DNA from: Lachnospiraceae bacterium
GTDB lineage: Bacteria > Bacillota > Clostridia > Lachnospirales > Lachnospiraceae
Reading direction: 5' to 3'
Length of the DNA: 64,000 bases
Assembly (NCBI GenBank): GCA_017540605.1
Contig: JAFYAS010000020.1
Location: 1-64,000, forward strand
Shown here: positions 327 to 22,144 of the stretch, piece after piece
How positions within the stretch are numbered: the first letter of the stretch is position 1
Layout of the letters: each line of letters opens with the position of its first letter
Position numbers and translations under genes: made by a program
The notes under the pieces: model-generated
Seen by the model: the letters and a program-made list of their open reading frames with translations, nothing else
What the model was told of the DNA's origin: nothing
Databases searched by the model: none

Positions 327-418
327 TTCCTATAATTATCCCTGATATGATAGTTTAGTACGAAAGCAATTATTGATAATTGAATGAAATTTTAATAAAA
401 TAATAATTAGTTTTTATG

Positions 419-452
419 TGTTGCGCTTTTGTTGCGCGGGGTATGATATTAT
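419..452 (+). promoter_or_regulatory. Shared two-repeat promoter element upstream of giant gene A
   Basis: Two TTGCGC boxes (421-426 and 432-437) lie 11 bp apart and are joined by TTTTG. A -10-like TATTAT (447-452) with an extended TGA follows, 26 bp from the start of the first box. The same layout and spacing occur before giant genes C and D. No good -35 hexamer sits 17 bp upstream of the -10, so the repeats probably bind an activator or an alternative sigma factor. The AT-rich stretch 343-418 holds a small palindrome (CAATTATTGATAATTG) and no gene that I can see. Confidence 0.65.
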
Positions 453-495
453 CAAGCCAACATAATAATTAACAATCTACGAGAGGAGAACAATT

Positions 496-3400
496 ATGAA
501 GGAAATTGATGAAATGAACTATTATGGACAGGGAGCAAAGGAGAATCTTAACGAGGATGATTACAAGAATGAGTTGAAGCGTCTTGAAGCCGAGAAGAAG
601 GCTAGAGAAAAATACGAGTCTGATGAGATAATAAAGGCAGACCTCGAGAAAAAAGAAGAGATTAAGAAGCAGGCAGAAAAGGATGCCAGAGAAAAGGAAA
701 AAGAAGGCAGACAGAAGCGTATTGAGGCAAGACAGAAGGTTCTCAAGGACGAAGAAGCAGAGAGAAAGCGTATAAAAGACGAACGCGATAAAGCTATAGC
801 CAAGTTTGACACGCTTGAAACAGAGGATATGTTGAAAGTCCTTAATGACGGCGATGACATGCAGATATATTATAACCAGATGTTCAAAGATGGTTATATG
901 AGCTATAGAAACGACCAGCGAATTAACAAAGCATTTGACGAAATCAAACATTTCAGTTTAGATGTATCCGATGAAGAGCTTGAGAAGGCTGATGTACTTT
1001 TTCGTATGCTGTTTTCTGATATTGCAGAGTTTGAGAAACCTTTCATTTACTTTATCAATGATAATAATATTCCGGACGATCCGAATAGGCAGGACGATAT
1101 GATTGCCGCCAACTTTGTCGATGATAATATATCCGTACAGGAAATAATTGATAAGGAAATTAACGATAAGGGTATCTATGTTTCGCCGGAGAAGACCATG
1201 CGCCTGCAGAAGTTTTATGTTCTCAATAAGATCAAGGACATATATGGAATGGTAGATACTTTTGTCGGTGAAGATGTAAAGAAATTGAAGACCCTTGACC
1301 CTGAAAAGAATAAGGAGACAATCGCTTTTATTAATAAGGAGTTGGATGAAAAACTTAAATACTATGGCGATGATATCAAATACAGGGGATTTGTCGCAGA
1401 GCAGAATATGAGTGGAAATATGGAAGTTCTCCGTCCGGCAGAGGATTATACAAGGGATGCCAGGAGTAGAAAGAGATGGCTTGATAAGCATCCGGAGAAC
1501 ACTGAGGTCAACTATATCTATGACGAGGTTCGTTATCAGCTTGCTTTTGCCAAGTTATTTTCCGAACAGGTTATGCAAGATCAGGAGTTTCCGTATTCAA
1601 TAAGACAAAACAGAAAGCCGTCAAGTCTTAACCGCGCAAAGTATGAACTTAGAGAAATCAGGGCTGCATTCGAGGTACAGGCAGAAAATGTACATGATTA
1701 TGATCTTAAAGACTTTAATAAGGCTATGGCATTTTTGTGTGATTATGAAGCCGGAGATTTCATGAAGCTTATGCGTGAGAAACCTCATATTGCGAATCTT
1801 GTGGATGTTGTAATGAACGGCCCTATGACCAGATTAGAGTATGGCGAAACACAGGAAGAGATATATAATAAGTTAAAGAAAGCAAATCCGGACACGCTTA
1901 AGTCATATATAAGATTTGTTGAGGGCGTGGCAGCTCAGGTCGAAGCTGAATATGCGAAACAGAAATTCGCTGCAGAAGGTTACCCGAAGGAAAAGGAAGA
2001 AGAAGTTAAGAGTAAATGTGTTAAGGCTGCTGATAATTTCTATTCTTATAGTAATAATCTTAAGCCTGCTAATCTCAAGGCCTTTGACAAGTATTGCAGA
2101 AAGCGTGTATCAAGAGCTTTTGACAAGGAAGATAATGGCAATATCCTTTCAGATATGAAAGTTATAACTAATGAGGTATCTGCTCTTCAACGAGGATGGA
2201 GTTTTAAAGAGACTTTCATATTTGCCATGGTTCATTCCGTATACAAGAAAACGAGAGAGTTATACTATAACAAGAGTAGGCAGAAATATGGAAATCAATA
2301 TAATGAGATAGCAGACATTGAATATAATCTTGAACAGGCAAAGACCGCTGTTGAAAGGAGACAGCAATTAGTTAAATTTGAAAACTTTATCAGAAAAAAT
2401 ATTGATGATAAAGAGCTTGTCGCTCCGACAATGGATTATCGGCTTGAATATGATGAGGTCAGAGAGAATTTTGACAACGGATATAGTGATGCTGTTAAGG
2501 CTGATCTTAAGAAGGTTGAGAATGATCCTGCCAAACTTGCACAAGAAATGGTCAAAATGAAGACCATCGCTTATGATACTGACAATAATAATATACATAA
2601 TGAGATATTCAAGGACTACATCAAAGGTCTTGATGAAAATAAGAAGACGGAACTTCAGAAGGCGATATACAATGAGCGCCATAATCAGATGCTCAAGCGT
2701 GCGGAAAACGTAAGCAAGTATAGCGAAGAGATATATAAGCGTGACGAGCTTGCCACATTCAAGGAGAATCGGACGATTCATGATGATGTCTATGCTCAGA
2801 TCGGACGTATAGTCAGCGAGAATGACGGTGTTACCGCAGCGGATGATCTTGAGGGATTGTTCGAGGCTAAGTTAGCAGATGATGTTAAGAAAAAGATTAC
2901 CGATGATTTCACTGAGAAGAACATTAAGAGTAAGGCTTTCAAGATCGGTGATGAAGAATATCCGGATTTTTCACATTATCAGATGGAGTTAGCCAAAAAG
3001 ATTGACAATAACAAGGCTGACCATGGATTTAAGGTGGTAAAGGCTCCGGATGGCGGTTTCAACATCCGTTACGACAAGGAGATTGTTGAAATCAAGAAAG
3101 ACCTGATGGAAAAGACGGATGCCCAGTTTGCTGACCTCGAGGTCGAGCTTGCCAGGATCAGATCCACAATGAATTCATATATAATGAGAATTAACAATGA
3201 TGAATTCACTAAGATTCATTCCGGCTCCGGTGACATGTATTATGATATGTACAGCCTTGCTACTTATGATAGCGGATTCTCTGTAAGTTCATATATAGAT
3301 ACTCTTAAAAATGTAGCAAAGAAGGTTGACGGATACATAAAAGAAGCTAAGGATGGAGACAAACCGGGTGAGGTTGAGTTCTTCGAAGAAATCAAAGCAT

Positions 3401-5760
3401 TTACAAATAAGTCTCTTGGTATATTAAAACCCGAGAATTATCCGGATGTCAATTTCTACACACTTACCAGAAATTTGAAAAGGGATGTGGAAGTTACCAA
3501 AGTTCTCTGGGAGAATAGGGAAGAGGGCAATAAATGGGAACCAAAGCCGTCTGAATATGTTAAGGAGAAACAGAAAAACGCAGTAGACAGCAAGGAAGAG
3601 CAGTTCTATAAGGCTATAGCAAAGACACCTTCAAGAAAGATGTTTGATGAGGATAAGGGATATGACGATATTAGACTTAAACCATCAAGAATCTATGAAA
3701 TGTGCGAGAAGTATTTCAATGCATTAGTTGCTATTGATGGTAATGACGTATCCAAAGAATCCAAGGAATATCAGGAATTCTACTACTCATTAAAGGATCT
3801 TAAGGAGAATTTCAGGGGTAAAGAGGTAAGTCAGATTGACGGCTCTAATGTGACTCTTGACTGTATTTTAGACCTTGACACCACAATAAAAGCATACCTT
3901 AAGAGTAACGATACTTCTAAGAATGCACCTCTTAGAAAGAATGTTGCCGACCAGATAAACAGAAATTATCTGTATGTTAAGCATGGTTTTGATTGGGATA
4001 ATAATGTTGCTAACTTTGAGGAATGGACCAAGAATGATCGGGATATCAAAAAAGCAATTAATAAGCTTCCTGATGAGGCAAAGCAAAAACGTCAGGCTAG
4101 AATAGACGCAGAGGAAAAAGCAAAAGAGGATGCAAAAAAGGCTGAGAAAGAAGCGGAAGAAACCAAGAAAAAATTAAATGATGAGTTAAAAAAGATAAAT
4201 GTCAAGGAAAGAGATATTAAGAACCAGCTCAAAGCTGCTGACAAGCAGATTGAAGAGGCAAATTCGCAGATAGGTACATCTAATAAGAATATTGCATGGG
4301 CAAAAACTCATAACAGACCAGATAGGGTAGCGGATAACGAAAAATTAATAAACGAATCAAATGCGAAGATTAAGGCGGCAGAGCAGAAAAAGGCGGATTT
4401 GAACAAACAACTTGCCGGCATTGATAAAGAGCGAAAGGATGCCAGAAAGAAATTCGTTGTCAAGGAGATAAAGGAAGAAAAGCCGAAGTTAAGACGTCAG
4501 GCAGTAAAGGATGCCATGATGAAGGTGGCTAAGAAGAACGATCCTGTCAAGAAGGTTGACGAAAAGAAGGTTGTTCCGCCTGTTGAGAAGGAAGTGCCTA
4601 AGAAGGGCAAGAAGGCTAATGCTCATGACGGAAATAACATGATTATTGATGAGAATGTTAATAATAATATCATTAATGATAAGAAAGACAATATCATCGA
4701 AATCAATGAGAAAGAAAATATCATCAATACAAATGTTATTAAGACGGATATCATCAATGAGATCCACAAGAAGGATAATATTATCAAAGACAATAAAAAG
4801 AAGAATGATATTATCGAATTAGATGATGACCTTAATGATAATGTTAAGAAGAATACAGAGAAGCCATCAGCAAAGAAAGCACCAAAGGCTAAGAAAGGCA
4901 AGTTAGAGGTCAGCTACAAGAGTTATATTATGCTTCATACCGGAGAACATGCCGGCAAGAATCATAAGGAAAAAGTCAATAACTTTGCAAAGGTTATCGC
5001 AGCATATATGCTCTCTGCCTCGAAAAAGAAGTTCTCTGTATCAATGATACATGACTTTGTAGATGTTATGAAAGAGAATCTGCTCCTTAATGATATATCG
5101 GAAGATAAGCTTAATGAGTACCTTGCATCACCTAAGGAAGCAACCAAGGGGGCTCTTAAGGTGGTAGGAGATTTATATAATGTCACAGGTAATCAGGGCG
5201 AGTATTGTAGAGAGATGATGCAGTTGTATAATTCTATGATGTCAGATGAAGGACGAAGTGCAGAGTATAAGGATCTTAAAAAATGTATTAAGAGAGTGGC
5301 ATTCTTAAATGACAAAGAATTTTCAAGCGAACAGGATAAAGCGGATTCTTTCAGCCACGTATCCTTCTTATTAGCATTTGGAATCGCTAAGTATATGAAA
5401 GGCAAGAAGAGTGTACGTACCTTTGAAGGCGGAAGAGAGCGCTTTGACAATGCCCTTGATGCGGCTGCAATTCTTACCAAGTATGCACCAAGTTCCAAGA
5501 AGAGAATCGACAAGCTCGTTGACAGGATCAATGAGGTTCGTAAAGACAAGAAGAATCCTGTTTCGTTAGATAATTATGGAGTTGACCGTGCGATTGCTGC
5601 GCATAATGCTCGTGAAGCAGCTAAGAAAGCAAAAAAAGGAGGAAAAGAAGAATTCTCTGCGATTGATGCCCATTGGCAGGCTGAAATAGATGCCCTAAAA
5701 AATGCTAATGAAAATGCCGGTAAGAAAGCTGATGCAAGGCAAACAATTAATCGAAAATGA
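496..5760 (+). CDS. Giant protein A, 1754 aa, unknown function
   Basis: No family recognised over its length. Start ATG follows a good ribosome-binding site (GAGAGGAG). There is no signal peptide or membrane segment. Residues ~10-115 are a highly charged Lys/Glu helical stretch with coiled-coil character. Residues ~1195-1330 are a second long coiled coil. Residues ~1375-1450 are an Asn/Ile/Asp/Lys low-complexity linker with repeated NII and DNII units. The C-terminal ~200 residues form a helical module with the motif GGRERFD near residue 1648, which aligns with the C-terminal parts of giant proteins B, C and D. A GWSxxE motif near residue 566 also occurs near residue 277 of giant protein D. 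The gene ends in a strong terminator and is followed 72 bp later by giant gene B. A structural or scaffold role is possible but unproven. Confidence 0.85.
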   Translation: MKEIDEMNYYGQGAKENLNEDDYKNELKRLEAEKKAREKYESDEIIKADLEKKEEIKKQAEKDAREKEKEGRQKRIEARQKVLKDEEAERKRIKDERDKAIAKFDTLETEDMLKVLNDGDDMQIYYNQMFKDGYMSYRNDQRINKAFDEIKHFSLDVSDEELEKADVLFRMLFSDIAEFEKPFIYFINDNNIPDDPNRQDDMIAANFVDDNISVQEIIDKEINDKGIYVSPEKTMRLQKFYVLNKIKDIYGMVDTFVGEDVKKLKTLDPEKNKETIAFINKELDEKLKYYGDDIKYRGFVAEQNMSGNMEVLRPAEDYTRDARSRKRWLDKHPENTEVNYIYDEVRYQLAFAKLFSEQVMQDQEFPYSIRQNRKPSSLNRAKYELREIRAAFEVQAENVHDYDLKDFNKAMAFLCDYEAGDFMKLMREKPHIANLVDVVMNGPMTRLEYGETQEEIYNKLKKANPDTLKSYIRFVEGVAAQVEAEYAKQKFAAEGYPKEKEEEVKSKCVKAADNFYSYSNNLKPANLKAFDKYCRKRVSRAFDKEDNGNILSDMKVITNEVSALQRGWSFKETFIFAMVHSVYKKTRELYYNKSRQKYGNQYNEIADIEYNLEQAKTAVERRQQLVKFENFIRKNIDDKELVAPTMDYRLEYDEVRENFDNGYSDAVKADLKKVENDPAKLAQEMVKMKTIAYDTDNNNIHNEIFKDYIKGLDENKKTELQKAIYNERHNQMLKRAENVSKYSEEIYKRDELATFKENRTIHDDVYAQIGRIVSENDGVTAADDLEGLFEAKLADDVKKKITDDFTEKNIKSKAFKIGDEEYPDFSHYQMELAKKIDNNKADHGFKVVKAPDGGFNIRYDKEIVEIKKDLMEKTDAQFADLEVELARIRSTMNSYIMRINNDEFTKIHSGSGDMYYDMYSLATYDSGFSVSSYIDTLKNVAKKVDGYIKEAKDGDKPGEVEFFEEIKAFTNKSLGILKPENYPDVNFYTLTRNLKRDVEVTKVLWENREEGNKWEPKPSEYVKEKQKNAVDSKEEQFYKAIAKTPSRKMFDEDKGYDDIRLKPSRIYEMCEKYFNALVAIDGNDVSKESKEYQEFYYSLKDLKENFRGKEVSQIDGSNVTLDCILDLDTTIKAYLKSNDTSKNAPLRKNVADQINRNYLYVKHGFDWDNNVANFEEWTKNDRDIKKAINKLPDEAKQKRQARIDAEEKAKEDAKKAEKEAEETKKKLNDELKKINVKERDIKNQLKAADKQIEEANSQIGTSNKNIAWAKTHNRPDRVADNEKLINESNAKIKAAEQKKADLNKQLAGIDKERKDARKKFVVKEIKEEKPKLRRQAVKDAMMKVAKKNDPVKKVDEKKVVPPVEKEVPKKGKKANAHDGNNMIIDENVNNNIINDKKDNIIEINEKENIINTNVIKTDIINEIHKKDNIIKDNKKKNDIIELDDDLNDNVKKNTEKPSAKKAPKAKKGKLEVSYKSYIMLHTGEHAGKNHKEKVNNFAKVIAAYMLSASKKKFSVSMIHDFVDVMKENLLLNDISEDKLNEYLASPKEATKGALKVVGDLYNVTGNQGEYCREMMQLYNSMMSDEGRSAEYKDLKKCIKRVAFLNDKEFSSEQDKADSFSHVSFLLAFGIAKYMKGKKSVRTFEGGRERFDNALDAAAILTKYAPSSKKRIDKLVDRINEVRKDKKNPVSLDNYGVDRAIAAHNAREAAKKAKKGGKEEFSAIDAHWQAEIDALKNANENAGKKADARQTINRK

Positions 5761-5771
5761 TAACTTAAGGA

Positions 5772-5799
5772 AAAGCCGGAGCTATCCGGCTTTTTCGCA
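5772..5799 (+). terminator. Terminator between giant genes A and B
   Basis: AAAAGCCGG, loop AGCTAT, CCGGCTTTTT: a classic symmetrical stem with a T run. Gene B has no copy of the shared promoter element, so it is either expressed by read-through here or from a weak promoter I cannot identify. Confidence 0.85.
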
Positions 5800-5832
5800 A
5801 TAGCCTAAAATTAGAGATAGAGGAGAAGGAAT

Positions 5833-8800
5833 ATGCCGGTTAAGAATAAAGATGGAAATTTGCGTTCCGAAAAGAGAAAAAAACAATTTAAGACATATGT
5901 CAACATAAAGATTAAATGGCTGAACTTGCCGCAGCGTGAAGCTGTTGTCGCCGTAGACAAGATGATGGATGAGATGGAACCGTATCTTAACATCAACAAT
6001 CCAAAGCCGATTAGCAGAGAACAGTTGAAGCATTACTGCGATGAATATACGAGGATATTAGGCTTGGTTGAGGATTCATGGAGTACCAAAACAGAATATG
6101 CCAGAAGTAAAACATCAGGATATAAGGAATTTAAGAAAATCCGAAGGATAATGTCTAAGGATATACATACCTTTGAAAAACTGCTTCATCAAGAGGATAA
6201 GAACGAATTCAATCTTTTGGAAGCATTTGAGGAATCACGTTCCGTTACAATAGATGTTGATGAGAAAGAGATGGATAAAGCAGTTGGGGGCGCTTTTTCC
6301 AATCGTATGCATATCAAAAACGGTGAGATTGATGGATATTTTACCCTGCATAGCAAACCGTACGATGCAGAAAGTGAGATTGATAAGGTTGCAGCAAAAT
6401 ACAGCAGCGAAGATAAAGATGTAATAGATTTTGTAAAATATATCATAGGACTTCAGGATGACGGCACCCCTAATTCCAAATTTTCCACTTTGTATAATGA
6501 TATGTGTACGGAAAGGAATACCTTAAGCGGCGATGCAGCATTTATATCTTCCGGGTATGATTCCATAGAAGAATATGAGAAGGAGTTTGGTGAAAAGTTA
6601 AAAGAGGATATTGAATCATTTCTCGACACTTACGGATATGAATCAGGAACCGAAGAATACGAAGCTGTCAAAGCTAAGTGTATGGTTTATACTAATGGGA
6701 AAAACATTGACGACCTTATTAATGCCAATAATGAAATCAGGACATATACGCATACTAATGCAACAATGTATGAAAGACATGGAATGAACATTAACGGCAG
6801 GGTTGATATGCGTAACTCCGCTATGAGTGCTGTTGCTGAGCTTATTAACGTGGATAATGTTATCGCTTCCTCAAAAAGTATGCGCATCAATTCCGGAGGC
6901 AAGACCATAAAGGGAACAATAATGAATGCCGCAAAGGGTGAAGATATCTTAAAGGCTTCAATGGATTCACCTTTGATGAAGGCGGGAATTAATAGTCTTG
7001 AGAATTCGCCGAGTCTTATTGAGGACATTGCGAATCTGCAGATACTTGATTATCTGTGCGGTAATGTAGACAGACATATCAAGAATTTCACATATATATT
7101 TGACGAGAATGGTAAACTTATCGGAATACAGGGTATAGATAATGATCTTTCGTTTGGTGAGAAGTATCAGGGTGTTAATTACAATATGGAATTTTCAACG
7201 CCACTTAGTGAGGCGATGATAATTCCGGAGAAAACTGCTGATGCCGTTATGAAACTTGATCCGGAAAAACTAAGAGTCATTCTTATCGGTTATGATCTTG
7301 ATCCTAATGAAATAGCTACTGCGGGAGAGAGGCTCCTGACTTTAAAGGAGCAGATCAAAAAGGGCAGAGAACGTTCACGCTATGAGACTGAGGTAAAACC
7401 GGAGTCAGGTTATCTGAAGGTTGTAAGCAGGGAGGATATTGAAAAAATATCCTTCAATATGGATCTTACTAATGATGACAAGAAGCTCATTGATACGACT
7501 AATCTATTCTATCGTGTTAAGGATGTGTTCTCCAATACAACGACAGACCGCATCATTAATGAAAAGAGAGGTCTTATCAAAAAAGAAGCTCTGCCTCATT
7601 TTCATGATTACAGACGGCAAATGTCTGAAGTGAAAAAATGCTATGAGGAATTAAAGACTGCTTCAATGGAAGTGGAAAGTAACGGACTGGCTGCTTTCAT
7701 GACAGATTATGAGAATGCACCGACTGACTTGTATAATATGGTCAATGGTGCAATCAACGAGGAATTCGTTAGTTTTGCGGAAACGACAAAAACTACGCTT
7801 ACAGGTCTTTTGCAGTATATGAAGAATGAGGGTATTCCGGAGGATAAGGTTCATTTATTGGACAATATGAAGAAGGCATTGGAAAATGTATCCGCTGATT
7901 TGGAAGCTATTGCAGATGCCGTCGGTAAGGATGAAAGCCTTAGGAATAAGATGCTTACAAGAAGGCAACAGGGCGTGGTTCAGGCTAACCATTTCAAGAC
8001 TAAGTCGGTGGAAAGAGATACCAAAAAGATTGTACGACCGGTTTCATATGCGCAGATGAAGCAGTCATTGGCATATGATAAAGATCTGAATATAAGAGAA
8101 CTTTCACAGGCGATACAGGGAGAACCCAAAGAGGAAAAAAAGAAAAATAATGATGAAGGACTTTTTGGTGGAGGAGGACTTGATAAAAAATTCCCGAAGT
8201 CTGCTCCTTCTTACATAAAACCTTGTCTACTCAATGCTTTGGAGATTGATAGCAGAGAGATATACATAAAGCTTGGAAGTGATGAGGAATCGGAAGAGCC
8301 AAAGCTTTCGGAGGAAGATAAAACAGCTCTCGTGGAGAAAATACTCGCTGACAGAATACTTAGCAGTCTTATTAATGATATTCCGAAACTTGCGGATAAT
8401 ATCGGTAATAATACGGATAAACTTGCAGGACTTCGTGACGAATTGATTGTCACTATGAGAAATGACAAGGATTGGGAAAAAGCAGTCGCAGATGAGAAGA
8501 ATGTAATTAAGACGGCGGCTTTAGCAAGGAAAAATGTATCGGCTATCGATGAGTTCCTTAAAAACGGCACGACGAATGAGCTTAGTCCTGAATTAAAGAG
8601 TCAGGCAGACTCTATTGCTGAATTTAACCTTATGATGAAAAACGGTGAGGGAAGTCAGAATAATAAAAAAGCATGGCTTCAAAAATACTTTTCATCAAAG
8701 CTTTCTGATAATATCAGAAATAAGTTAAAGGGTGCTATAGAAAACAATAGCTTTAAGATAGAGAATGCTATCAATTATGAAGACCTTGAGCCGAAAGAGA

Positions 8801-9909: not shown

Positions 9910-9940
9910 GGCCGGAAGATTGTGAAACCTGCTAGTTTTT

Positions 9941-10117
9941 TTGTTATTAACTTCTCTTTATAATTCACTTAAACCATATTTTGAAGATGAAAATATTACT
10001 GATGAATATACATATATACCGGTCTGGACATTTAAAATTTCCGGAGGAAATGGAGAAGTGTCTTATAGTATATCAGTAAATGCTATGGATGGTACAGTGT
10101 TAGATATGTATGAGTGA
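9941..10117 (+). pseudogene. Remnant of a PepSY-like or lipoprotein gene, C-terminal piece only
   Basis: This 177-base open stretch has no usable start and lies between giant genes B and C. Its translation ends with YIPVWTFKISGG and then YSISVNAMDGTVLDMYE before a TGA. That pattern, a xPVWxF strand followed by a strand ending in a DGTVL turn, is typical of the last PepSY-like repeat of secreted Firmicutes proteins. The upstream part of such a gene is missing, so I read it as a decayed remnant. The resemblance is judged by eye over about 45 residues. The stretch 9910-10120 shows nothing else. Confidence 0.45.
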
Positions 10118-10124
10118 TTATTTG

Positions 10125-10156
10125 TTGCTCTTTTGTTGCATATTACACTTTATACT
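10125..10156 (+). promoter_or_regulatory. Shared two-repeat promoter element upstream of giant gene C
   Basis: TTGCTC (10125-10130) and TTGCAT (10136-10141) are 11 bp apart with the same TTTTG between them. A -10-like TATACT (10151-10156) starts 26 bp from the first box, exactly as at genes A and D. The second box is the most divergent of the three sites. A second TATGATATT lies slightly downstream at 10162. Confidence 0.62.
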
Positions 10157-10208
10157 TCAGTTATGATATTCAAAAGTATGTGATTAAGAAATAATGGAGG
10201 TAATCATA

Positions 10209-13200: not shown

Positions 13201-15962
13201 TGATCGTTTACAGTGAGATGGGACAGCGTATGACAGCCATGCTTGACAGGGATCCGGAGCTGATGAAGCTTGCCACATCCAAGGGAATTACCGGTCAGGA
13301 TATTGAGCTTATCAGATCCATGGGAACCTTTGGAAGGATAGATGATCTTCGTATTAAAGTACTTAATATGTTTAGTAATAAGGGTATTATAAATGATCTG
13401 AAGCTTTCGGATACTCAGAAGGAAGAGTATTATACTGATCTGCTGATGGGAATACGTATTCAGGAAAATGCAGAAGGTATAGAAGAAGGACTAAGTGATA
13501 ATCCTGAATATCTAAGGGAAATAAATGAACGTGATAAAAAGGCAGCGGAGATATCTCTTAACGCTCTGACACAATTTGATATTGATATAAAGGAGCATCT
13601 GGAAGCAAATTACAGCCAGGCAAGTTTTGGACAGCTGCTGGCGGATCATAACAACCTTAAGAATGCAGCCCTTGCTGAACCTGTCGAAGCTGTCAGGTTT
13701 GAGAAGCTTGTTGATGCAAATCAAACCTTCAGGATAGCACTAAAAGAATTCTTTAAAAATCAGCAGACTCAGTTCAAGCAGTATGAAGAAGGACTCGTCA
13801 ACCGGATGATAGACGAGATAAATGCGGAAGGTATAAAACGTGGATATGACATGAGCCTCCCGGAAAATCATATGTACAGAGTTCCTATCATGATCGATCT
13901 GAAGAAGGCTCAGATGGAGGAAAAGAAAAAACAGGCTGAGAAGGGCCAGCTGCCTCAGGAGGAGAGAGAAGGTTTCGCCAGAGAATATGAGGACTTCCAG
14001 ATATATTCACGAATGGCATATTCTTCCTTCAAGGGACTGGGACTTTGTAAGGATGTACAAAGATTAATGCCGGGTGCAGGCGGTGTTATGATGAATTATA
14101 AAGGCCATACGGAGAAGATCATAGCTTTAAAATATAAATCGGTTAATCCCCTTATGCAGAAAATGTCTGATCCGGGCTTCTATGAGAAGGAAAGACGCCG
14201 TATAAAGGACTATCTGAAGGGCTCGGGAATCTCTAAGCTTAAGCCTGCCGACTTTTTCAGGCTGATGAATACCGGACATAAGGAGCAGGGTAAAACCTTT
14301 ACGACTTCACAGAGAAGGATGCTTTCTGTAGCTGCATCCCTGAAAGCCTATGAAAAGCTGAAGCCGAATGAAAAAAATCAGCTTGCAGCACTTTACGCTC
14401 CCCTTGCAGAGGTAAGAGAGCCAGAGCTTGCTCCTCGGGGACGTAATGCTAAAGAAAGTAAGGCGCTCCTTAACAGAAGAATGATAAGTGCATTTGCAAA
14501 GAATGCAGAAAAGGTGATCAGCCAGATCAAGGGAACCTACGGAAAAGGAAAGAGTGATTCCAAGCCTTCAGCTGATATGAAGAAGGTAGCGAACAGTCTG
14601 AAGGACTTCAGGACGGATATGAGCGTAGAGGAGTTCGAGAAGCAGCTTAAGGCTCTTGATGAGGTTGTAGATATTTACGTTAAGAAGAAGGGATTTCCAA
14701 GTAAGTCTGACAGAGTTGACAGATTGGAATTCGTCAAGAATCTGAAGATAGATATCGCAGATTATAAAAATGAAGCAGAATCGATCCGAAAAGGAAAAGG
14801 CGGTAAGATTCATGATATTCATCTTGGTGAAGTAACAAAGGGAAATACCATCACTGTAAATGATCTGAAGAAAAATCTGCTTAGTTTCACTCATAATATG
14901 ATGGAAATGAGTTCAGTAGGAATGCTTCCTATATATCTTTATGATCCGACAGTTCCAAGCCAGCTCAGAACAGAGATGCCACCTACACCGAAAGGGGAAT
15001 TCAAGAAATTTCTTGATGCTATGAAGGATTGGGATAAGCTTAAAAAGCCGGGACATGATCATCAGTCACCTAAGGTAAGCTTTGATATTATAAAAGAAGT
15101 TGTGGAAAGATTAAACACTGCAGCAACAAAATGGCTTTCATCACATGAACCTTATGGAACAGATTTTGAGCTTGAAAGATATGATTTTGTGAAGACAACC
15201 TGGGAGAGTGCGCAGACTGCCTTAAGAAATATCAGATATCTGCAGCCATATATGGATATAGTCACACCTGAAGGAAGGATGGGCAGCCTGAATATATATG
15301 ATGCAGTAAAAACAATGCCTGAACCATATAAGAATATTACGGCAGTTACGGATGAGCAGGGTTCTTTCTTCTATCCAACAGCTGTTCTGCAACCCTGGAA
15401 TGATGCAAAACAGCAGCTTGGTCAGGATGAAAACAATTTTCAGAAGAAATATAATAAGGGAAATAAAATAAGAACTGAACTGTCTAATACTTATGCAAAT
15501 GTGGCTATAGGAATAATTTATAAGTACCCTCTGTACAACCTTGATCTGGAGAACGCTGATCAGGAATCCTTAAATAAGAGACCTGTTAATATGGCTGGAC
15601 AGGCTACAGTGGATATGTTCATAAGGTCAATGGATAAGGTAGACGGATGGGCAGAGCTTTCAAAGAAATATACTGATAGTGATCTGAAGGATGCTTTGAA
15701 AGATATATCTAAAGATGTAGCAAAAACCAAGGCATTCCGGAATGTTGTTGAGGATTCAGCATTATGTGATATCTGTGACAACGTCATGGAAGAAGCAAAA
15801 AAACTAGGAGATGATAATAAGTTATCAGCTATCGTGAGCAAGGAAAATGTTGAAAAACGCATCAGGCAGATTCAAAAAGCAAAGAACGCCCAGAACAATG
15901 TACAGAATAACGCCCAGAATAATGCACAGAACAATGCGCCTGTAAATGCTATGGGGCTATAA
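10209..15962 (+). CDS. Giant protein C, 1917 aa, with a papain/C39-like cysteine protease core
   Basis: An in-frame ATG at 10194 overlaps the GGAGG site (10196-10200), so the start is taken as 10209. After ~285 helical residues comes a cysteine-peptidase-like core. Q300 precedes GGWSCG with Cys at 305. GHYITIIG carries His at 423, and KYKDS carries Asp at 439. The order Gln-Cys-His-Asp and the local sequence fit papain-like or C39-like peptidases. An Asn-rich linker follows (~615-640). Residues ~877-1100 hold a module shared with giant protein D, with the motif EMGQRMTAMLDRDPEL. A helical module near 1590-1670 aligns with A, B and D. The tail is a QNNA repeat. No signal peptide or membrane segment is seen. 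Leucine CTG codons look more frequent than in genes A, B and D. Substrate is unknown. Confidence 0.83.
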   Translation: MTAYKELEVREKFNKITRLLNYLQRNMKEFYDFYAPYNNFYNTVKTNLDSLYQTNDLGLIDQMSAENIEDIKKEYSDLQLMMLNHKQKMLEWAQQNGIDQKIINKAENYFNEVNEMITRDKNVVDTLDIRDGLSLPAAIYKNSYELSHNQAEKDIKFAEYLMIMRNTNSKEEELLEKYIKSSPEKIRRDCVNRLEKHPRIYEYVTMPQDAIYAINTGDETIINEYLNSHGDVLSFTQKTRLNKQIAAMKLAEQIKNEGEFFMENEEEIGDKPKVFRPSDAKEPDACELDIDLPDFQTSNQGGWSCGAQLLINSRGSKKVTQEHVRDYRAPLTKQQIDEDRNLINRQYNYDSSQNLMNRSDPILAYAPNSMLHELTIQQYLRPEEKAGISQESYLDNSLEVIKKTIKHAITVEHSPVVFRKPGHYITIIGIDGDTVKYKDSQRKPGTTPNQTHKTSLKELTAQLILNKDINRRSSVEMTWVSDIKLSKDGKTIHGIPSKYTEMKEDGTLLLPPDEIQLAADDANSTGINRNGVRIYRPGGDEDKMLGQNEASVYSDGGIVKFEKVYMPKQLNAEYLRKMAEKRTVEEEATLNMQDKEYWGVDHAIDVVRPEAANIANENNVNNNIENDNANNAVNQEEAEQNYQPHYSLSEISTAIGNVADELDSHKISFSLTGQYEDYDNLSTELQEIHDLAELGRKSAIKNDGRFGQNKMKRMMDLINGAITTAGSYLDNKYEDMMDDPSRKTDPKKQTREQPRIKAVIGALDKLMDIRNVLSGGADQELKRAEKDGIINNYKAVLVNEADKKKQQEATFKNRSVDADLMERQITEIDALMGLQPEFLDQFKSKNRIKYQTVNGNKVSLFRKIKPINEGFNAIGTDDKSLGLSSKDFAALSFAALTTRDIYEKYDSKYKVWDDNPYLDKESRYRVNNTRVVFGLASKLDYEMTKSIDNIVDSRNYTADVMRSYENGNKEPLAKLITEGIKNFKDIALGGDYELYTDLIVYSEMGQRMTAMLDRDPELMKLATSKGITGQDIELIRSMGTFGRIDDLRIKVLNMFSNKGIINDLKLSDTQKEEYYTDLLMGIRIQENAEGIEEGLSDNPEYLREINERDKKAAEISLNALTQFDIDIKEHLEANYSQASFGQLLADHNNLKNAALAEPVEAVRFEKLVDANQTFRIALKEFFKNQQTQFKQYEEGLVNRMIDEINAEGIKRGYDMSLPENHMYRVPIMIDLKKAQMEEKKKQAEKGQLPQEEREGFAREYEDFQIYSRMAYSSFKGLGLCKDVQRLMPGAGGVMMNYKGHTEKIIALKYKSVNPLMQKMSDPGFYEKERRRIKDYLKGSGISKLKPADFFRLMNTGHKEQGKTFTTSQRRMLSVAASLKAYEKLKPNEKNQLAALYAPLAEVREPELAPRGRNAKESKALLNRRMISAFAKNAEKVISQIKGTYGKGKSDSKPSADMKKVANSLKDFRTDMSVEEFEKQLKALDEVVDIYVKKKGFPSKSDRVDRLEFVKNLKIDIADYKNEAESIRKGKGGKIHDIHLGEVTKGNTITVNDLKKNLLSFTHNMMEMSSVGMLPIYLYDPTVPSQLRTEMPPTPKGEFKKFLDAMKDWDKLKKPGHDHQSPKVSFDIIKEVVERLNTAATKWLSSHEPYGTDFELERYDFVKTTWESAQTALRNIRYLQPYMDIVTPEGRMGSLNIYDAVKTMPEPYKNITAVTDEQGSFFYPTAVLQPWNDAKQQLGQDENNFQKKYNKGNKIRTELSNTYANVAIGIIYKYPLYNLDLENADQESLNKRPVNMAGQATVDMFIRSMDKVDGWAELSKKYTDSDLKDALKDISKDVAKTKAFRNVVEDSALCDICDNVMEEAKKLGDDNKLSAIVSKENVEKRIRQIQKAKNAQNNVQNNAQNNAQNNAPVNAMGL

Positions 15963-16049
15963 AATAGAGGGGCTGACACATTATTAAGTTAAATCGCCCA
16001 TGAACGGGCCGGAAGAAGACAGTCGGCTTGTACCAGGCACCTCAATTTG

Positions 16050-16081
16050 TTGCGCTTTTGTTACGCAACTGATGTTATATT
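16050..16081 (+). promoter_or_regulatory. Shared two-repeat promoter element upstream of giant gene D
   Basis: TTGCGC (16050-16055) and TTACGC (16061-16066) are 11 bp apart, again joined by TTTTG. A -10-like TATATT (16076-16081) with extended TGT starts 26 bp after the first box. It is the third example of this arrangement in the window. Confidence 0.64.
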
Positions 16082-16142
16082 ATAGCCATACTTAGCAGAA
16101 TTAATCAAATATCATTTTTTTAGGAAAAAGGAGGAATCCACA

Positions 16143-19100
16143 ATGCCGGGATTTAAGGAGTTAAGAAAAGGAAAATACCCAAACGCAGCGCTTGCCTATG
16201 CTGTAGAGAAATTCTATGTCAACACTATGATTATACTTGAGCAGTATGTGCCTGAAGAGGAACTTGATCAATATAAGAAAGAGTATATGGATTATATGGA
16301 TATGTCAGATTTAGTCTTTGCTGATGACATAATATATAGTCGGAACAAATCGGAGAATGTCAAGAAAAAAATGACTGATACCAAAGCGGACGAATATGGA
16401 ATCAGGTTCTTAGAGAAGACTAAAGACTATTTTACGAAAGCCCGCAAAGCGTTTCCCGAATTGGATAAAGATTTTAAGGATTTCTTTGACAGTCTGGAAA
16501 TTGAGGGCAGTTCTGATGGCAGTCTTATGGAAGCCAGATTCGAGAGCCAGTATCTGACTAATCTTAATCAGCTTGGCGGCGGTCCCAAATTCTTCAAATT
16601 CTCAAGTGCCGAACTTAAGAATGGACTCTTGGGTGAGAAAGACGAGGCGACTGGTAAGTACAAAGGACCTTATGAACCGCTTATGGATTATTATAGAAGC
16701 ACAACTAATCTTATTAAGCTTGAATTTGTCAGACAGAAGAATAATGAAGAGGGGTGGACTCCTGAAAAGGAGCAGGAGTTTCTTGCCAATCTTAAGAAGG
16801 AGCAGGAGAATGTTGTAGACAGCTTTGAGAGATTATATGCCATTGAGGATAATGGACAATATGACAAATACCTTGACAATGAATTGGAACATATTACCGG
16901 TAAGAAAGGTCAGATAAGAAGTGCCTATAAGTGTATCGGGGCTGTCAAAGGTCAGATAAAGGCTATTGAGAATGGATGGTCACAGGATGAACTTACTGTA
17001 TTAGGGTCAATCGGTATTATGGAAGCCCACCTTAAGATGTTAAAGGATGAGTTTGAAGAGAAAATGGCATATGCCTATACCGATATTAAATTAGGAGAAA
17101 ATGGCATTGCTGACCTTAGTGATAAAGATTTAATCTTATGGGGAAAAGCCCGTAGAGCTATTCAGGCGGAAACGGATAACAGAAAGCTCATTAAAGAATT
17201 CGAGGATGAGCTTAACAAACTTAAAGAAGCAGCCTGGAACAAAAAAATCGAATCTGACAAAGATAAGGAAGAGATTACAGGCAGCGTAAGCAGTTTTATG
17301 AAAAAATACCGCGAGATTGAGCTAAAGGATTTCTCTATGTTAGGCATGTTAAACGGACTTGCGAAAGAAATAAAAGACAATGAAAACTTTGTCAAGGAAG
17401 TGGCTGATAAACTGGTACTTGCAAAGAATAATATCAACAATAATGTTAATCAGAATGTCATTAATAACAATGCCAACATTAATAATGTTAATCAGAATGT
17501 CATTAATAACAATGCCAACATTAATAATAATGCAAAGCCTGAACTGTATGATGTCGGGGTGAAACGTGATTCTCTGCCGAATGAGGGTTATGTTGAAGCT
17601 TTCAATGATAGAAAAAAGAAAGCCGACACTGCGATTCGGGCATATAGCGCACAGTCAAGCAAGGAGGATAAGATTCTCTTCTATCTGTCATACGCTGCCA
17701 AAAACACTGTTAATCAAAATCAACCGATTATGAATACGACAATAGAGATACCTGCTGATATCCCGGAATTAGAAAAGAATGCAATTAAGAATAAGGCCGA
17801 CGAGCAGTTCCAAAGTGCAATGGAAATCAGGAAAAATGCGGGTATTAATCCCATAGCCGGAACTTCGCCTGAAGAGGATGACTGTCAGGAGAATCTGAAA
17901 AACAAGCTCATATACGATCTTGTGGGCGATGGCTCAAGAGAGAATATCATAGACAGTTTCAAGGCTTTCGGAATTGTTAATGCCCTTAATATTAATAACC
18001 AGGGCAAGAAATACAAAGAGATACTTGACTCGCTTCCGAAGAATGAGCCTAACAGGGATAAGAAAGCCCTGTATCTGGCATACAAACGTCAGGGACATGA
18101 GGCGATGTTAAACGCGGCTGCCGGCTCATTTAGTTCAACGGATTTTATTGCGGTATTCAATTATTCGGATGATATCGGTATCGAGGTAAAAGACAAAATA
18201 TTCGATAATTTCAAGTATGATAAGGACCGGACTACATTCAAAGACTTCTTTGACAAATTAGGCTATACGGCTGATGAGAGAAAGCTTTACATGGCCGATA
18301 ACGGATGTAGTGAGGCAGATAAGATATACGATTATTATAAGAATAAGTTGACAGATGATGAAGTGGACAATCCAACGGATGCTGATGTTCTTGAGTCTGT
18401 TAAAGAGGCGTATACTACGTTATTTGCAAAGATTATAGTTAATTCGGTAATGAAAGGTCCGATGGATTATTTTGATGCAAATTATAGTGTTAATATGACT
18501 GTCAGCCATTATATGAATATATTGCGCTTTAAGGATGAAGAAAAGAAGGATTTCCTTAAATATTACGGTGCAAAAGAAACTGATTCGGTATTCAATACAT
18601 TCAATAAATATATTAACGATAATGAAGTTATAAAGAATCGCATCCTTGACGAAAATGAAAAGAATGAGATGAACAGGGAGATTACCGCTGATAATGTCAG
18701 AAATTTTGCAAAGCAATTATTGGGGGAGGAATTTGCATCCAAGCGCAAAAAGTTAAAGACCTTCGAGAATGAATATTCTGAGAATATGACGGTTGCCCGT
18801 TATATGGAGATTCTTGATCTTGATGATTTCGCAAAAAATGAGTTCTTATCTTCATATGACACTACAGAAAATGCCAGGATAAAAGATGTATTTTCCAAAG
18901 AATTATCGGCTGAAAAAGGTGATAATGCTGTTGTATCTGATGAAGAGCTCAATGTATATGCCGGAAAGAAATTAGGGGATGCAATTGAGGAGCAGATCAA
19001 TTCGGGAAAATATATTGAAGATAAGACCGTATGGGGCAATATGTATGTTCATTTTGCAGACAATATCGGAACCTTTGGAGACAAGATGATATATAAGAAA

Positions 19101-21065
19101 GGTCATATTGTCAACGGCGGTGAAGGTCTTGTTCCCAAGAATAATCCAAAGACTGAAAGTCAGAAGGAATTCAAGAAGTGGACAGAGACCACCGGTAAGG
19201 AGATGTTAGAGAATGTTTATTTGGAGGATCAGATTGATGCGTTTAAGAAGACCACAGCGGTAATCTATTCCAAGAAGGCAATCAATATTCATAATGATGA
19301 TTTTGTCGCAGATTATTTTGACAGTGCGGTTCCTGTCTCTAATACGACATTTCTTAGAGGCGCGATTTCTGCCTTAGAGAATACTAAGACGGGTAAGAAG
19401 TGGACAAATTCAACTAAAGACAGAAGCAAGAACAGCGAGAAATACGAGACAATGCTAAAAGCCATTAAGGAATACCATGAGAAGATGGTGACTGACGACA
19501 GATTCGACCTTGTGGGCGCAAGAGACGACCTTAAGAAGGCTTGTATCGCCTATATTACTGGGAAGGAATCCTTAAGAAAGAGCGATTTTGGCAAGGAGAG
19601 ATTCGATGTAGCCATGACAGTGCTGTTCGATATAATGCCGAGAAAAGAATTCCTTAAGATCATAAGACAGGTTAACGGGGAACGTTCAAGAAATGAGCGT
19701 ATCAGCTTCGATACCTATAATGTCAAATATGCAGAGCTTTATTCTGCGGAAGAAGCCCGCGAAGAGGAACGTCAGGTCAATGCTGAGAAGAAATATCTCA
19801 CACATATTCCTGATGATTATATTGAGAAATTCGATAACGTCTTAAATGTGTTCGGATTAGAGCCTAAGGCTGAAGGTCAGCTTGATGATATTTTTGATGA
19901 TTTTAACCTTACATTTACTAAGGTAGAGGATAAGCTTTCACCAATAGGTAAAGGACTTAAGGAGCGAAGCCTTTCCAATGAAGATTTTGCAGCTATTGCA
20001 TATGCCGGAACATTGTCGGATGCGGCAATAGAATATGACAGCAGATATAAGGATAAAGATCTGAAGCAGTACAAATTACTCGCTACAGCTAAGGATTATA
20101 CCGTAGCTCTTGCCAGAAAACATATATCTCCTGAAACCGGTGAGTATGCGGAAGTGATTCAGGCAGGACGCAATGCGGCTGTTGATGCCATGAAGGAATA
20201 TGCCAAGGGTGACAAATTCCTGCTTGCTTCCATTCTGTCTTCCGGAATACGCCACATTGCCGCAATGTCAAGGCTTAGTGAAAGTATTGATGAGGACTAT
20301 ATATGCAACGGTGAGATGGGGCGTCGTATGATAGAGATGCTTGACCGTGATCCGCAGCTTAAGAGTATGGTCATCAACACATCTTATCAGGGAATCAATG
20401 ACGACATATCATATATTGATACCATCAATCAGGCGGCTAAAATATTCATTGATGCCTCGGCTGCTTCTGAAGTGCTGATGAATATAGCTGCTGATCCTGA
20501 GTCGTATAATTTGGATGGATGGGATGCAAAGGGAAAACAGGAACTTATTACTGATATTATGATGCTTAAGGTGCTTGACAGTAGTAAAGAGATGTATCAT
20601 AAAAGTGTGAATGAGGTATTAAAGACTGATTCTAAGTACAAAATCAAGATGCAGCAGGCAGTCGAAAAGGAGATTGCTGATATTGATGAGGCCATAAGCA
20701 GTGATGAAGTAAAAGAAGTCAGAAATAAACTTATCGATGCAGCCGCAAGTAAGAAGGAGCTTAGAATCAAAATAATGAAAGATTATATCCGTAACGACAA
20801 GCTGCTTTTGGCACTGAATACGGATAAATCGGTTGCAGCATTAAGAGAAAGTGTCAAAGAACTTGTAAAGGAGAACGGTTTTGACAAATTAGGACCTGAA
20901 GATATTCTCAAGAAGATGAATGACAGGAAGCTTCTGGCAAAACTTGGCAATATAACCAAGGATGCTAATTCCAAGTATTCTGATGAATACAGCAAACGTA
21001 AGGAGGCAGAGAAGAAGAGCAGGCTTGAAGCCCAGCAGAAGAAGCAGGCTGCCAGAGGTCATTAA
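16143..21065 (+). CDS. Giant protein D, 1640 aa, unknown function, modular with internal repeats
   Basis: Start ATG follows AAAGGAGGA. The protein is mostly helical with no signal peptide or membrane segment. Residues ~420-465 are an Asn-rich linker encoded partly by a 42-bp tandem repeat. Residues ~696-955 hold three related units of ~85-97 residues; the last two begin with NMTVxxYMxIL and end near an ALG- or AKKLG-type helix. Residues ~1068-1190 contain the module shared with A, B and C, with the motif GKERFD at about 1150-1155. Residues ~1267-1500 hold the module shared with C, with EMGRRMIEMLDRDPQL. The N-terminal GWSQDE motif near 277 resembles one in A. No catalytic motif was recognised. 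It is the last giant gene and is followed by a terminator-like hairpin at 21178. Confidence 0.84.
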   Translation: MPGFKELRKGKYPNAALAYAVEKFYVNTMIILEQYVPEEELDQYKKEYMDYMDMSDLVFADDIIYSRNKSENVKKKMTDTKADEYGIRFLEKTKDYFTKARKAFPELDKDFKDFFDSLEIEGSSDGSLMEARFESQYLTNLNQLGGGPKFFKFSSAELKNGLLGEKDEATGKYKGPYEPLMDYYRSTTNLIKLEFVRQKNNEEGWTPEKEQEFLANLKKEQENVVDSFERLYAIEDNGQYDKYLDNELEHITGKKGQIRSAYKCIGAVKGQIKAIENGWSQDELTVLGSIGIMEAHLKMLKDEFEEKMAYAYTDIKLGENGIADLSDKDLILWGKARRAIQAETDNRKLIKEFEDELNKLKEAAWNKKIESDKDKEEITGSVSSFMKKYREIELKDFSMLGMLNGLAKEIKDNENFVKEVADKLVLAKNNINNNVNQNVINNNANINNVNQNVINNNANINNNAKPELYDVGVKRDSLPNEGYVEAFNDRKKKADTAIRAYSAQSSKEDKILFYLSYAAKNTVNQNQPIMNTTIEIPADIPELEKNAIKNKADEQFQSAMEIRKNAGINPIAGTSPEEDDCQENLKNKLIYDLVGDGSRENIIDSFKAFGIVNALNINNQGKKYKEILDSLPKNEPNRDKKALYLAYKRQGHEAMLNAAAGSFSSTDFIAVFNYSDDIGIEVKDKIFDNFKYDKDRTTFKDFFDKLGYTADERKLYMADNGCSEADKIYDYYKNKLTDDEVDNPTDADVLESVKEAYTTLFAKIIVNSVMKGPMDYFDANYSVNMTVSHYMNILRFKDEEKKDFLKYYGAKETDSVFNTFNKYINDNEVIKNRILDENEKNEMNREITADNVRNFAKQLLGEEFASKRKKLKTFENEYSENMTVARYMEILDLDDFAKNEFLSSYDTTENARIKDVFSKELSAEKGDNAVVSDEELNVYAGKKLGDAIEEQINSGKYIEDKTVWGNMYVHFADNIGTFGDKMIYKKGHIVNGGEGLVPKNNPKTESQKEFKKWTETTGKEMLENVYLEDQIDAFKKTTAVIYSKKAINIHNDDFVADYFDSAVPVSNTTFLRGAISALENTKTGKKWTNSTKDRSKNSEKYETMLKAIKEYHEKMVTDDRFDLVGARDDLKKACIAYITGKESLRKSDFGKERFDVAMTVLFDIMPRKEFLKIIRQVNGERSRNERISFDTYNVKYAELYSAEEAREEERQVNAEKKYLTHIPDDYIEKFDNVLNVFGLEPKAEGQLDDIFDDFNLTFTKVEDKLSPIGKGLKERSLSNEDFAAIAYAGTLSDAAIEYDSRYKDKDLKQYKLLATAKDYTVALARKHISPETGEYAEVIQAGRNAAVDAMKEYAKGDKFLLASILSSGIRHIAAMSRLSESIDEDYICNGEMGRRMIEMLDRDPQLKSMVINTSYQGINDDISYIDTINQAAKIFIDASAASEVLMNIAADPESYNLDGWDAKGKQELITDIMMLKVLDSSKEMYHKSVNEVLKTDSKYKIKMQQAVEKEIADIDEAISSDEVKEVRNKLIDAAASKKELRIKIMKDYIRNDKLLLALNTDKSVAALRESVKELVKENGFDKLGPEDILKKMNDRKLLAKLGNITKDANSKYSDEYSKRKEAEKKSRLEAQQKKQAARGH
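17430..17530 (+). repeat. 42-bp tandem repeat coding an Asn-rich linker
   Basis: A 42-bp unit is present about twice, nearly identical, with partial flanking units. It encodes the 14-residue period NINNVNQNVINNNA inside giant gene D. It joins two helical parts of the protein and probably varies in copy number between strains. Confidence 0.8.
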
Positions 21066-22056: not shown

Positions 22057-22144
22057 CCTTATTCTTATACAGTGGTACAATTCAAAATATTTGATATTTT
22101 TATTCTTTGTTATAAACAAGATTAAATGTGAGAGGAGAAGGAAA

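What the first reader, a model, noticed from the sequence alone, without database searches (positions are those of the whole stretch)
419..21065. Cluster of four giant, mosaic proteins as a candidate undescribed system
Four consecutive genes of 1358-1917 codons match no known family over their length, yet share modules with each other. One carries a kinase-like core and one a cysteine-protease-like core. Three share the same upstream element. They have Asn-rich or Asn/Gln linkers (A, C and D) and no signal peptide or membrane segment. The pattern suggests a co-regulated set of modular proteins, perhaps enzyme-bearing effectors or an intracellular scaffold. Function is inference.
Basis: partly seen in the sequence, partly recalled or inferred. 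Interest (0 to 1): 0.85.

Follow-up and report, generated by a model that had tools for sequence, protein, structure and literature searches.

The report
Giant candidate effectors of Gram-positive T4SS
The four giant genes belong to a 34-gene set that shares one promoter with a type IV secretion machine in a Lachnospiraceae bacterium (relatives of known origin come from the rumen), so they are probably proteins injected into other cells, perhaps rumen protozoa, something Gram-positive bacteria are barely known to do.

Summary
The four giant ORFs are real, but they are one outpost of a larger set. The genome holds about 34 mosaic proteins (285-2310 aa) without signal peptides, 17 of them on contig C26. 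A promoter box (GTTGCGCTTTTGTTGC, an 11-bp tandem repeat, 11 bp before a TATAAT-like -10) directly precedes 23; 8 more follow a box-headed gene. The same box heads a type IV secretion (T4SS) operon on C26 (VirD4, VirB6-like, VirB4; pilin adjacent). Effector module and T4SS clade co-occur: 6 of 6 module-bearing genomes lie among 9 T4SS-positive of 250 Lachnospiraceae, and all 23 genomes found by the module in another collection carry the T4SS. No PF03432 relaxase lies on the T4SS contig. Effector C-termini are basic, Asn-rich tails; VirB4 of this clade alone has a long acidic tail. Protein B carries a PI4K-II/Fam20-like kinase; C a papain-like fold lacking the Cys its relatives share. Best explanation: protein effectors of a monoderm T4SS, probably aimed at eukaryotes, perhaps rumen ciliates. 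Translocation and target are inferred, not shown.

The parts
420..452 (+). Regulon promoter of A: box GTTGCGCTTTTGTTGC (420-435) and -10 TATTAT (447-452)
496..5760 (+). Protein A, 1754 aa, candidate T4SS effector
   Evidence: paralogues; 93% identical protein in NC2004
4636..4743 (+). Asn/Ile/Lys-rich linker of A before its C-terminal module
4903..5613 (+). C-terminal module 1 (A residues 1470-1706), shared with six other proteins of the genome
5833..9909 (+). Protein B, 1358 aa, kinase-bearing candidate effector; no box of its own, 72 bp after A
6130..7473 (+). Kinase module of B (residues 100-547): N411, D413, R414, N418 and D436-N-D438; PI4K-II/Fam20-like fold
9100..9870 (+). C-terminal module 2 (B residues 1090-1346), shared with four other proteins of the genome
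10124..10156 (+). Regulon promoter of C: box GTTGCTCTTTTGTTGC and -10 TATACT
10194..15962 (+). Protein C, 1922 aa, papain-like module plus helical modules and (Q)NNA tail
11049..11993 (+). Papain-like module of C (residues 286-600); Gly307 replaces the Cys of relatives, His428 kept
12795..13340 (+). Module shared by C (868-1049) and D (1264-1434)
   Evidence: E 4e-14
16049..16081 (+). Regulon promoter of D: box GTTGCGCTTTTGTTAC and -10 TATATT
16143..21065 (+). Protein D, 1640 aa; residues 471-1631 are 31% identical to a protein on contig C40
17442..17535 (+). Asn-rich linker of D (from residue 434)
19932..20444 (+). Copy in D of the module shared with C

Best explanation
A-D are four of about 34 protein effectors of a type IV secretion system encoded elsewhere in the same genome (contig C26) of a Lachnospiraceae bacterium related to rumen isolate NC2004. 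Shown: the proteins form a mosaic paralogous set; most are headed by one promoter type that also heads the T4SS operon; effector module and T4SS clade co-occur across genomes. Inferred: a response regulator with a winged-helix-like C-terminus (C26:8475-9305) binds the 11-bp tandem repeat and switches on machine and cargo together. Inferred: the basic, Asn/Gln-rich, probably disordered C-terminal tail is the export signal and is received by VirD4 and by the long acidic tail that only this clade's VirB4 has. Inferred: unfolded cargo crosses membrane and wall through the T4SS, and inside a target cell its kinase, papain-like, ADP-ribosylglycohydrolase and unknown modules act. The target is most likely a eukaryote, with rumen ciliates the first candidate.
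For: Paralogous mosaic set. Box: 32 sites at <=2 mismatches against 7 for the backwards pattern at <=3, fixed 11-bp spacing to the -10 in 25 of 30, 8-38 sites per genome in 11 related T4SS-positive genomes with control 0-1, in front of giant genes and of a T4SS pilin gene in relatives. T4SS operon headed by a box. Co-occurrence 6 of 6 within 9 of 250, P 3e-10, and 23 of 23 genomes in the other collection. Effector-like genes inside T4SS operons in other genera. No PF03432 relaxase on the T4SS contig; none at all in 7 of 13 genomes. Basic, hydrophobic-poor C-terminal tails and acidic VirB4 tail only in this clade. PI4K-II/Fam20-like kinase fold, ADP-ribosylglycohydrolase domain. Lachnospiraceae are enriched on rumen protozoa (PMC6217230).
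Against: No experimental export or transfer. Cytosolic proteins can also be co-regulated with a T4SS. The box is absent or at chance level in five more distant T4SS-positive genomes. No VirB1-like wall hydrolase or VirB8 was identified; the VirB6 match is below Pfam's cut-off. Most modules have no known function. Cultured members grow without protozoa (general knowledge). Genomes are related, so co-occurrence counts are not fully independent, and at least one genome (G160 = G254) is in both sets.
Confidence: 0.75

Rival explanations
1. They are cargo of the T4SS, but the targets are other bacteria or archaea (antibacterial or anti-methanogen delivery, as in the Xanthomonas X-T4SS).
For: The rumen is a dense bacterial community; monoderm T4SSs normally contact bacteria (general knowledge). 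HipA-like kinases that act on bacterial targets share the kinase fold (HipT Z 9.9, HipA in Foldseek list). Papain-like folds also occur in antibacterial toxins.
Against: No immunity-gene pattern is seen: the array is giant gene after giant gene. About 34 very large, diverse proteins per genome is unlike small-toxin repertoires. Best kinase matches are phosphoinositide kinases and Fam20, and most bacteria lack phosphoinositides (general knowledge).
Confidence: 0.2
2. They are intracellular proteins co-regulated with the T4SS (assembly factors, scaffold or a developmental programme), not exported.
For: No Sec signal. The regulon also holds signalling genes: SpoIIE phosphatase, HATPase and STAS genes sit in the T4SS region.
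Against: Repertoire diversity, module shuffling, apparent cassette transfer between species (96% DNA identity of box plus gene A against 68% protein identity of VirB4), and uniform basic tails fit cargo better than structural parts.
Confidence: 0.12
3. The T4SS is a conjugation machine of a mobile element, and the giant genes are merely accessory genes of that element.
For: The machine has conjugation-type parts including a coupling protein; the genome has two relaxases on other contigs, C25 and C29.
Against: No PF03432 relaxase on the T4SS contig and none at all in 7 of 13 T4SS genomes. The cargo genes are spread over many chromosomal contigs under one promoter. Other relaxase families were not tested.
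Confidence: 0.05

Closest known systems
Streptococcus suis 89K pathogenicity-island T4SS (as reviewed in PMC12857230)
   Same: A monoderm T4SS proposed to export protein effectors.
   Different: The review describes one island with conserved T4SS genes of a mobile element; here there is a genome-wide regulon of about 34 giant modular proteins, no relaxase on the T4SS contig and an acidic VirB4 tail. Sequence relation of the machines was not tested here.
Legionella Dot/Icm T4SS and its effector repertoire
   Same: Large chromosomally scattered repertoire of mosaic, enzyme-bearing proteins without Sec signals; C-terminal hydrophilic tails; kinase folds such as the MavQ lipid kinase and a papain-like effector Lpg2622 appear among structural neighbours.
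   Different: Diderm IVB machine in a pathogen of amoebae; no sequence relation of effectors shown; here a monoderm VirB4/VirD4 system in a Lachnospiraceae.
Conjugative T4SSs of Gram-positive ICEs/plasmids (PrgI/VirB4, VirD4, TrbL)
   Same: Core ATPase, coupling protein, pilin and polytopic protein.
   Different: Here no relaxase alongside, VirB4 carries a long acidic C-terminal tail, and operons carry STAS/SpoIIE/HATPase genes, P0007-like surface proteins and effector genes.
Type II PI 4-kinases, Fam20 kinases and H. pylori CtkA
   Same: Fold and catalytic N-x-D-R...N and D-N-D motifs of protein B.
   Different: 8-18% identity; a module inside a 1358-aa protein; substrate unknown.
UfSP/ZUFSP and C39-like papain-fold peptidases
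   Same: Fold of the module in C (Z about 10.8); relatives keep a Cys at the helix start and His.
   Different: 8-13% identity; protein C itself has Gly307 where relatives have Cys.

Membership tests
Type IV secretion system (the machine on C26) | VirB4-type ATPase | tested here: met
   C26:81942-86096, TraG P-loop PF19044 E 7e-19
Type IV secretion system (the machine on C26) | VirD4-type coupling protein | tested here: met
   C26:89865-91901, PF02534 E 2e-52, TraG-D_C E 7e-32
Type IV secretion system (the machine on C26) | VirB2-like pilin | tested here: met
   C26:94586-95023, PF18895 39.1 bits, cut-off 26.6
Type IV secretion system (the machine on C26) | VirB6-like polytopic protein | tested here: inconclusive
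   C26:86169-88865, TrbL_4 18.4 bits against cut-off 27; multi-span by eye
Type IV secretion system (the machine on C26) | VirB1 wall hydrolase, VirB3 and VirB8 | not tested
   Not searched for specifically. A PrgI(VirB3)-like N-terminus on VirB4 is my reading of the sequence; no VirB1 or VirB8 was recognised in passing
Conjugative element | Relaxase next to the T4SS | tested here: not met
   PF03432 never on the T4SS contig of the 13 genomes searched; other relaxase families not tested
T4SS effectors (A-D) | T4SS-dependent transfer into another cell | not testable with these tools
   Needs an experiment
T4SS effectors (A-D) | Co-regulation with the T4SS | tested here: met
   Shared box and -10 spacing at sequence level; expression not tested
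T4SS effectors (A-D) | Co-occurrence with the T4SS across genomes | tested here: met
   6 of 6 within 9 of 250; 23 of 23
T4SS effectors (A-D) | C-terminal hydrophilic, charged translocation tail | tested here: met
   Last 30 residues +4.4 net, hydrophobic 13% against 34%; that it is a signal is untested
PI4K-II/Fam20-like kinases (module of B) | Catalytic N-x-D-R...N and D-N-D motifs | tested here: met
   Invariant in nine sequences at the aligned positions N, D, R, N, D, D; N411, D413, N418, D436, D438 in B
PI4K-II/Fam20-like kinases (module of B) | Kinase fold | tested here: met
   Z 16.1 to PI4K-II beta, 3.5 A over 232 residues, pLDDT 77
PI4K-II/Fam20-like kinases (module of B) | Phosphoinositide or protein phosphorylation | not testable with these tools
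   Needs an assay
Papain-like cysteine peptidase (module of C) | Papain-like fold | tested here: met
   Z 10.8 to UfSP2 and 10.7 to a C39-like peptidase; Foldseek best E only 0.002
Papain-like cysteine peptidase (module of C) | Cys at the start of the central helix | tested here: not met
   Gly307 in C, Cys in all 7 relatives; nearby Cys310 might serve, untested

The most novel reading that the evidence does not exclude
A commensal Gram-positive lineage runs a Legionella-like strategy: a dedicated single-membrane T4SS, under one regulon promoter, injects more than 30 giant modular proteins (PI4K-like kinases, papain-like and ADP-ribosylglycohydrolase proteins among them) into rumen ciliates or other eukaryotes, choosing cargo by basic disordered C-terminal tails that bind an acidic VirB4 tail.
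Probability: 0.4. Interest if true: 0.95.

Novelty: new variant of a known kind. Interest (0 to 1): 0.85.

Why it matters
A 2025 review calls it a long-standing question whether T4SSs of Gram-positive bacteria evolved as dedicated effector translocators, with one Streptococcus suis island as the first apparent case (PMC12857230). This finding supplies cultured isolates (NC2004, C6A11, NE2001, LC2019, Eubacterium ruminantium FB3002), a defined machine, a defined promoter and about 34 candidate substrates in the window's own genome, so the question becomes directly testable. It would also offer a molecular basis for the reported enrichment of Lachnospiraceae on rumen protozoa (PMC6217230). I found no paper describing the system in the open-access library searched; subscription papers and preprints were not searchable.

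Tried and rejected
Anti-phage defence: no PADLOC match. Phage proteins: no convincing PHROG match. Sec-exported surface proteins: no signal or membrane stretch. Other Pfam/NCBIfam hits (MakE, Cdt1_C, TMIE, AlkZ-rel, OSCP, Swi5, CesA, Imm68, ThsA_Macro) lie below cut-off and were treated as chance. PDB sequence search: nothing for C, only weak Fam20 hits for B. RNA and tRNA scans: only a 23S end at the window start. A four-gene system was dropped once about 30 more paralogues appeared. The box as a universal mark of the system was rejected: five more distant T4SS-positive genomes lack it or are at chance level. First alignment attempts failed on strand and one region request was too long. Box hits at C53, C58 and C64 look like chance.

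Full report
What is there. The four ORFs are real and contiguous: A 496-5760 (1754 aa), B 5833-9909 (1358), C 10194-15962 (1922) and D 16143-21065 (1640). They start soon after a 23S rRNA end. They have no signal-peptide-like or membrane stretch and no family over their length. Only C and D share a clear module with each other.

Not four but about thirty-four. Searching the window's own genome (2.85 Mb, 64 contigs) with each protein found many mosaic paralogues. After reading the loci I count 34 candidates of 285-2310 aa, 37,591 aa in all. Seventeen lie on contig C26, the rest on scattered contigs. Modules recombine: C-terminal module 1 (A 1470-1706) occurs in seven proteins, one of which (C12:8481-9338, 285 aa) is little else; C-terminal module 2 (B 1090-1346) occurs in five; the 2310-aa protein on C56 joins the papain-like module of C to the kinase and C-terminal modules of B.

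One promoter. Most transcription units begin with GTTGCGCTTTTGTTGC. The genome has 32 sites with up to two mismatches; the pattern read backwards gives 7 at up to three. In 25 of 30 sites the -10 hexamer starts exactly 11 bp after the box. The box is an 11-bp tandem repeat, the arrangement that OmpR/PhoB-type regulators bind (general knowledge). A receiver protein with a weak winged-helix match lies inside the array (C26:8475-9305), and its homologue lies between effectors and T4SS in genome G245. That it binds the box is inference. Twenty-three of the 34 have their own box, eight follow a box-headed gene on the same strand, and three have none recognised.

The same promoter heads a secretion machine. 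The box at C26:94357 lies 126 bp before an operon with a secreted protein, VirD4 (PF02534, E 2e-52), a membrane protein, a TrbL/VirB6-like protein (weak match), a VirB4 with a PrgI-like N-terminus (my reading) and a STAS protein. A T4SS pilin (PF18895) lies just upstream of that box. A second box (C26:81555) heads a large surface protein (P0007), followed by HATPase, MFS and SpoIIE genes and then the effector array. The parts recur together across genera: pilin, secreted protein, VirD4, VirB6-like, VirB4, STAS, P0007, with some reordering. Effector-like genes lie inside or beside them in G153, G245 and others. In another genome a box lies directly before a pilin gene (L072:11677).

Co-occurrence. 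Among 250 Lachnospiraceae (249 genera), module 1 occurs in 6 genomes. The long VirB4 of this clade (1290 bits or more) occurs in 9, and P0007 in the same 9 plus one marginal hit. All 6 lie within the 9; hypergeometric probability 3e-10. In a second collection, 23 genomes found by module 1 alone were searched for VirB4: all 23 have it, 22 at 1311 bits or more and one as a fragment at a contig edge. At least one genome (G160 = G254, same coordinates) is in both sets, and relatedness inflates the figures, but the first set has about one species per genus. In 391 Clostridia the clade was found only in this genome and another Lachnospiraceae; other families have shorter sister VirB4s, with one 1203-aa frame (G328) not examined. 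Named cultured carriers are NC2004, C6A11, NE2001, LC2019 and Eubacterium ruminantium FB3002; that these are rumen isolates is general knowledge, and several MAG titles name rumen or omasum.

Not obviously a conjugation element. Relaxase PF03432 was never on the T4SS contig, and 7 of 13 T4SS-positive genomes lack it; the window genome has two, on C25 and C29. Other relaxase families were not tested.

A candidate export signal. The last 30 residues of the 34 proteins carry +4.4 net charge, 13% hydrophobic residues and 13% Asn. Other ORFs of the same loci have 0, 34% and 4%; Mann-Whitney P is 4e-13 for charge and 6e-19 for hydrophobicity. Box-headed genes of relatives show the same tails (+4.4). 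Complete VirB4s of this clade have an added C-terminal tail of about 280-570 residues with net charge -69 to -190; sister VirB4s (896-939 aa) end without it. That basic tails dock on this acidic tail is my inference.

Enzymes. The kinase module of B has Pfam Fam20C above cut-off, conserved N411, D413, R414, N418, D436 and D438, and a model (pLDDT 77, pTM 0.75) closest to type II PI 4-kinases (Z 16.1, 3.5 A over 232 residues), then Fam20 and H. pylori CtkA. A paralogue on C26 scores above cut-off as PI3/PI4 kinase. The papain-like module of C (pLDDT 82) is nearest UfSP/ZUFSP and C39-like peptidases (Z about 10.8). All seven relatives have Cys where C has Gly307, so C may be an inactive copy unless Cys310 serves. 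A box-headed protein on C34 has an ADP-ribosylglycohydrolase domain (E 3e-36). Most other sequence has no known match.

Cassette movement. Box and gene A are 96% identical at DNA level to NC2004 over 398-5591; the match begins 22 bp before the box. VirB4 of NC2004 is only 68% identical to the one here. Promoter plus gene therefore seems to move between species as a unit.

How it most likely works, and how sure. Shown at sequence level: mosaic family, shared promoter on cargo and machine, co-occurrence, uniform tails. Inferred: export by this T4SS (0.75); a eukaryotic target (about 0.6 given export); rumen ciliates as that target (weaker). The ciliate idea rests on the rumen origin of named carriers, eukaryote-type kinase folds, and the report that Lachnospiraceae make up 12.7-32% of protozoa-associated bacteria against 3.75% free-living (PMC6217230). 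Against: no functional data, cultured members live alone, and the box is missing from five more distant T4SS-positive genomes.

Known or new. The review PMC12857230 calls dedicated effector T4SSs in Gram-positives a long-standing question, with S. suis 89K as the first apparent case. The machine here has a T4SS core, so the kind is known; the repertoire, the regulon, the VirB4 tail and the commensal host appear undescribed in the papers I could search. I rate it a new variant of a known kind.

Noticed in passing
window 398-5591 and L055:3259-8425: Promoter plus gene A is 96% identical at DNA level to NC2004 in a different context, while VirB4 of the two is 68% identical: apparent horizontal transfer of an effector cassette.
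   Followed up: partly
window 11103-11114 (C residues 304-307): Protein C lacks the Cys that all seven relatives of its papain-like module have (NQGGWSCG against GNGCWS).
   Followed up: yes
G000:C12:8481-9338; L066 and L067 near 3672 and 7835: A 285-aa protein consisting almost only of C-terminal module 1 and a basic tail is conserved in other genomes behind its own box; perhaps the minimal export unit or an adaptor.
   Followed up: partly
L162 (G046) and L163 (G161): Sister T4SS loci with 918-939-aa VirB4 lacking the acidic tail; STAS proteins are also present in G046. No relaxase was noticed by eye; function unknown.
   Followed up: no
G000:C26:66524-75626: SpoIIE phosphatase, HATPase and STAS genes (partner-switching type) plus MFS and lysyltransferase-like genes sit beside the T4SS and recur there in other genera; possibly a second control layer.
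   Followed up: partly
G000:C34:74225-76495: Box-headed protein with an N-terminal ADP-ribosylglycohydrolase domain (E 3e-36) and a basic Asn-rich tail.
   Followed up: partly
L164 and L181: VirB4 frames of NC2004 and a RUG14211 MAG each hold one internal stop: broken gene or sequencing error.
   Followed up: no
window 22091-27307: A 1738-aa ORF with a hydrophobic signal-like start and a repeat-rich end, probably an ordinary surface protein; no regulon box was found before it.
   Followed up: no
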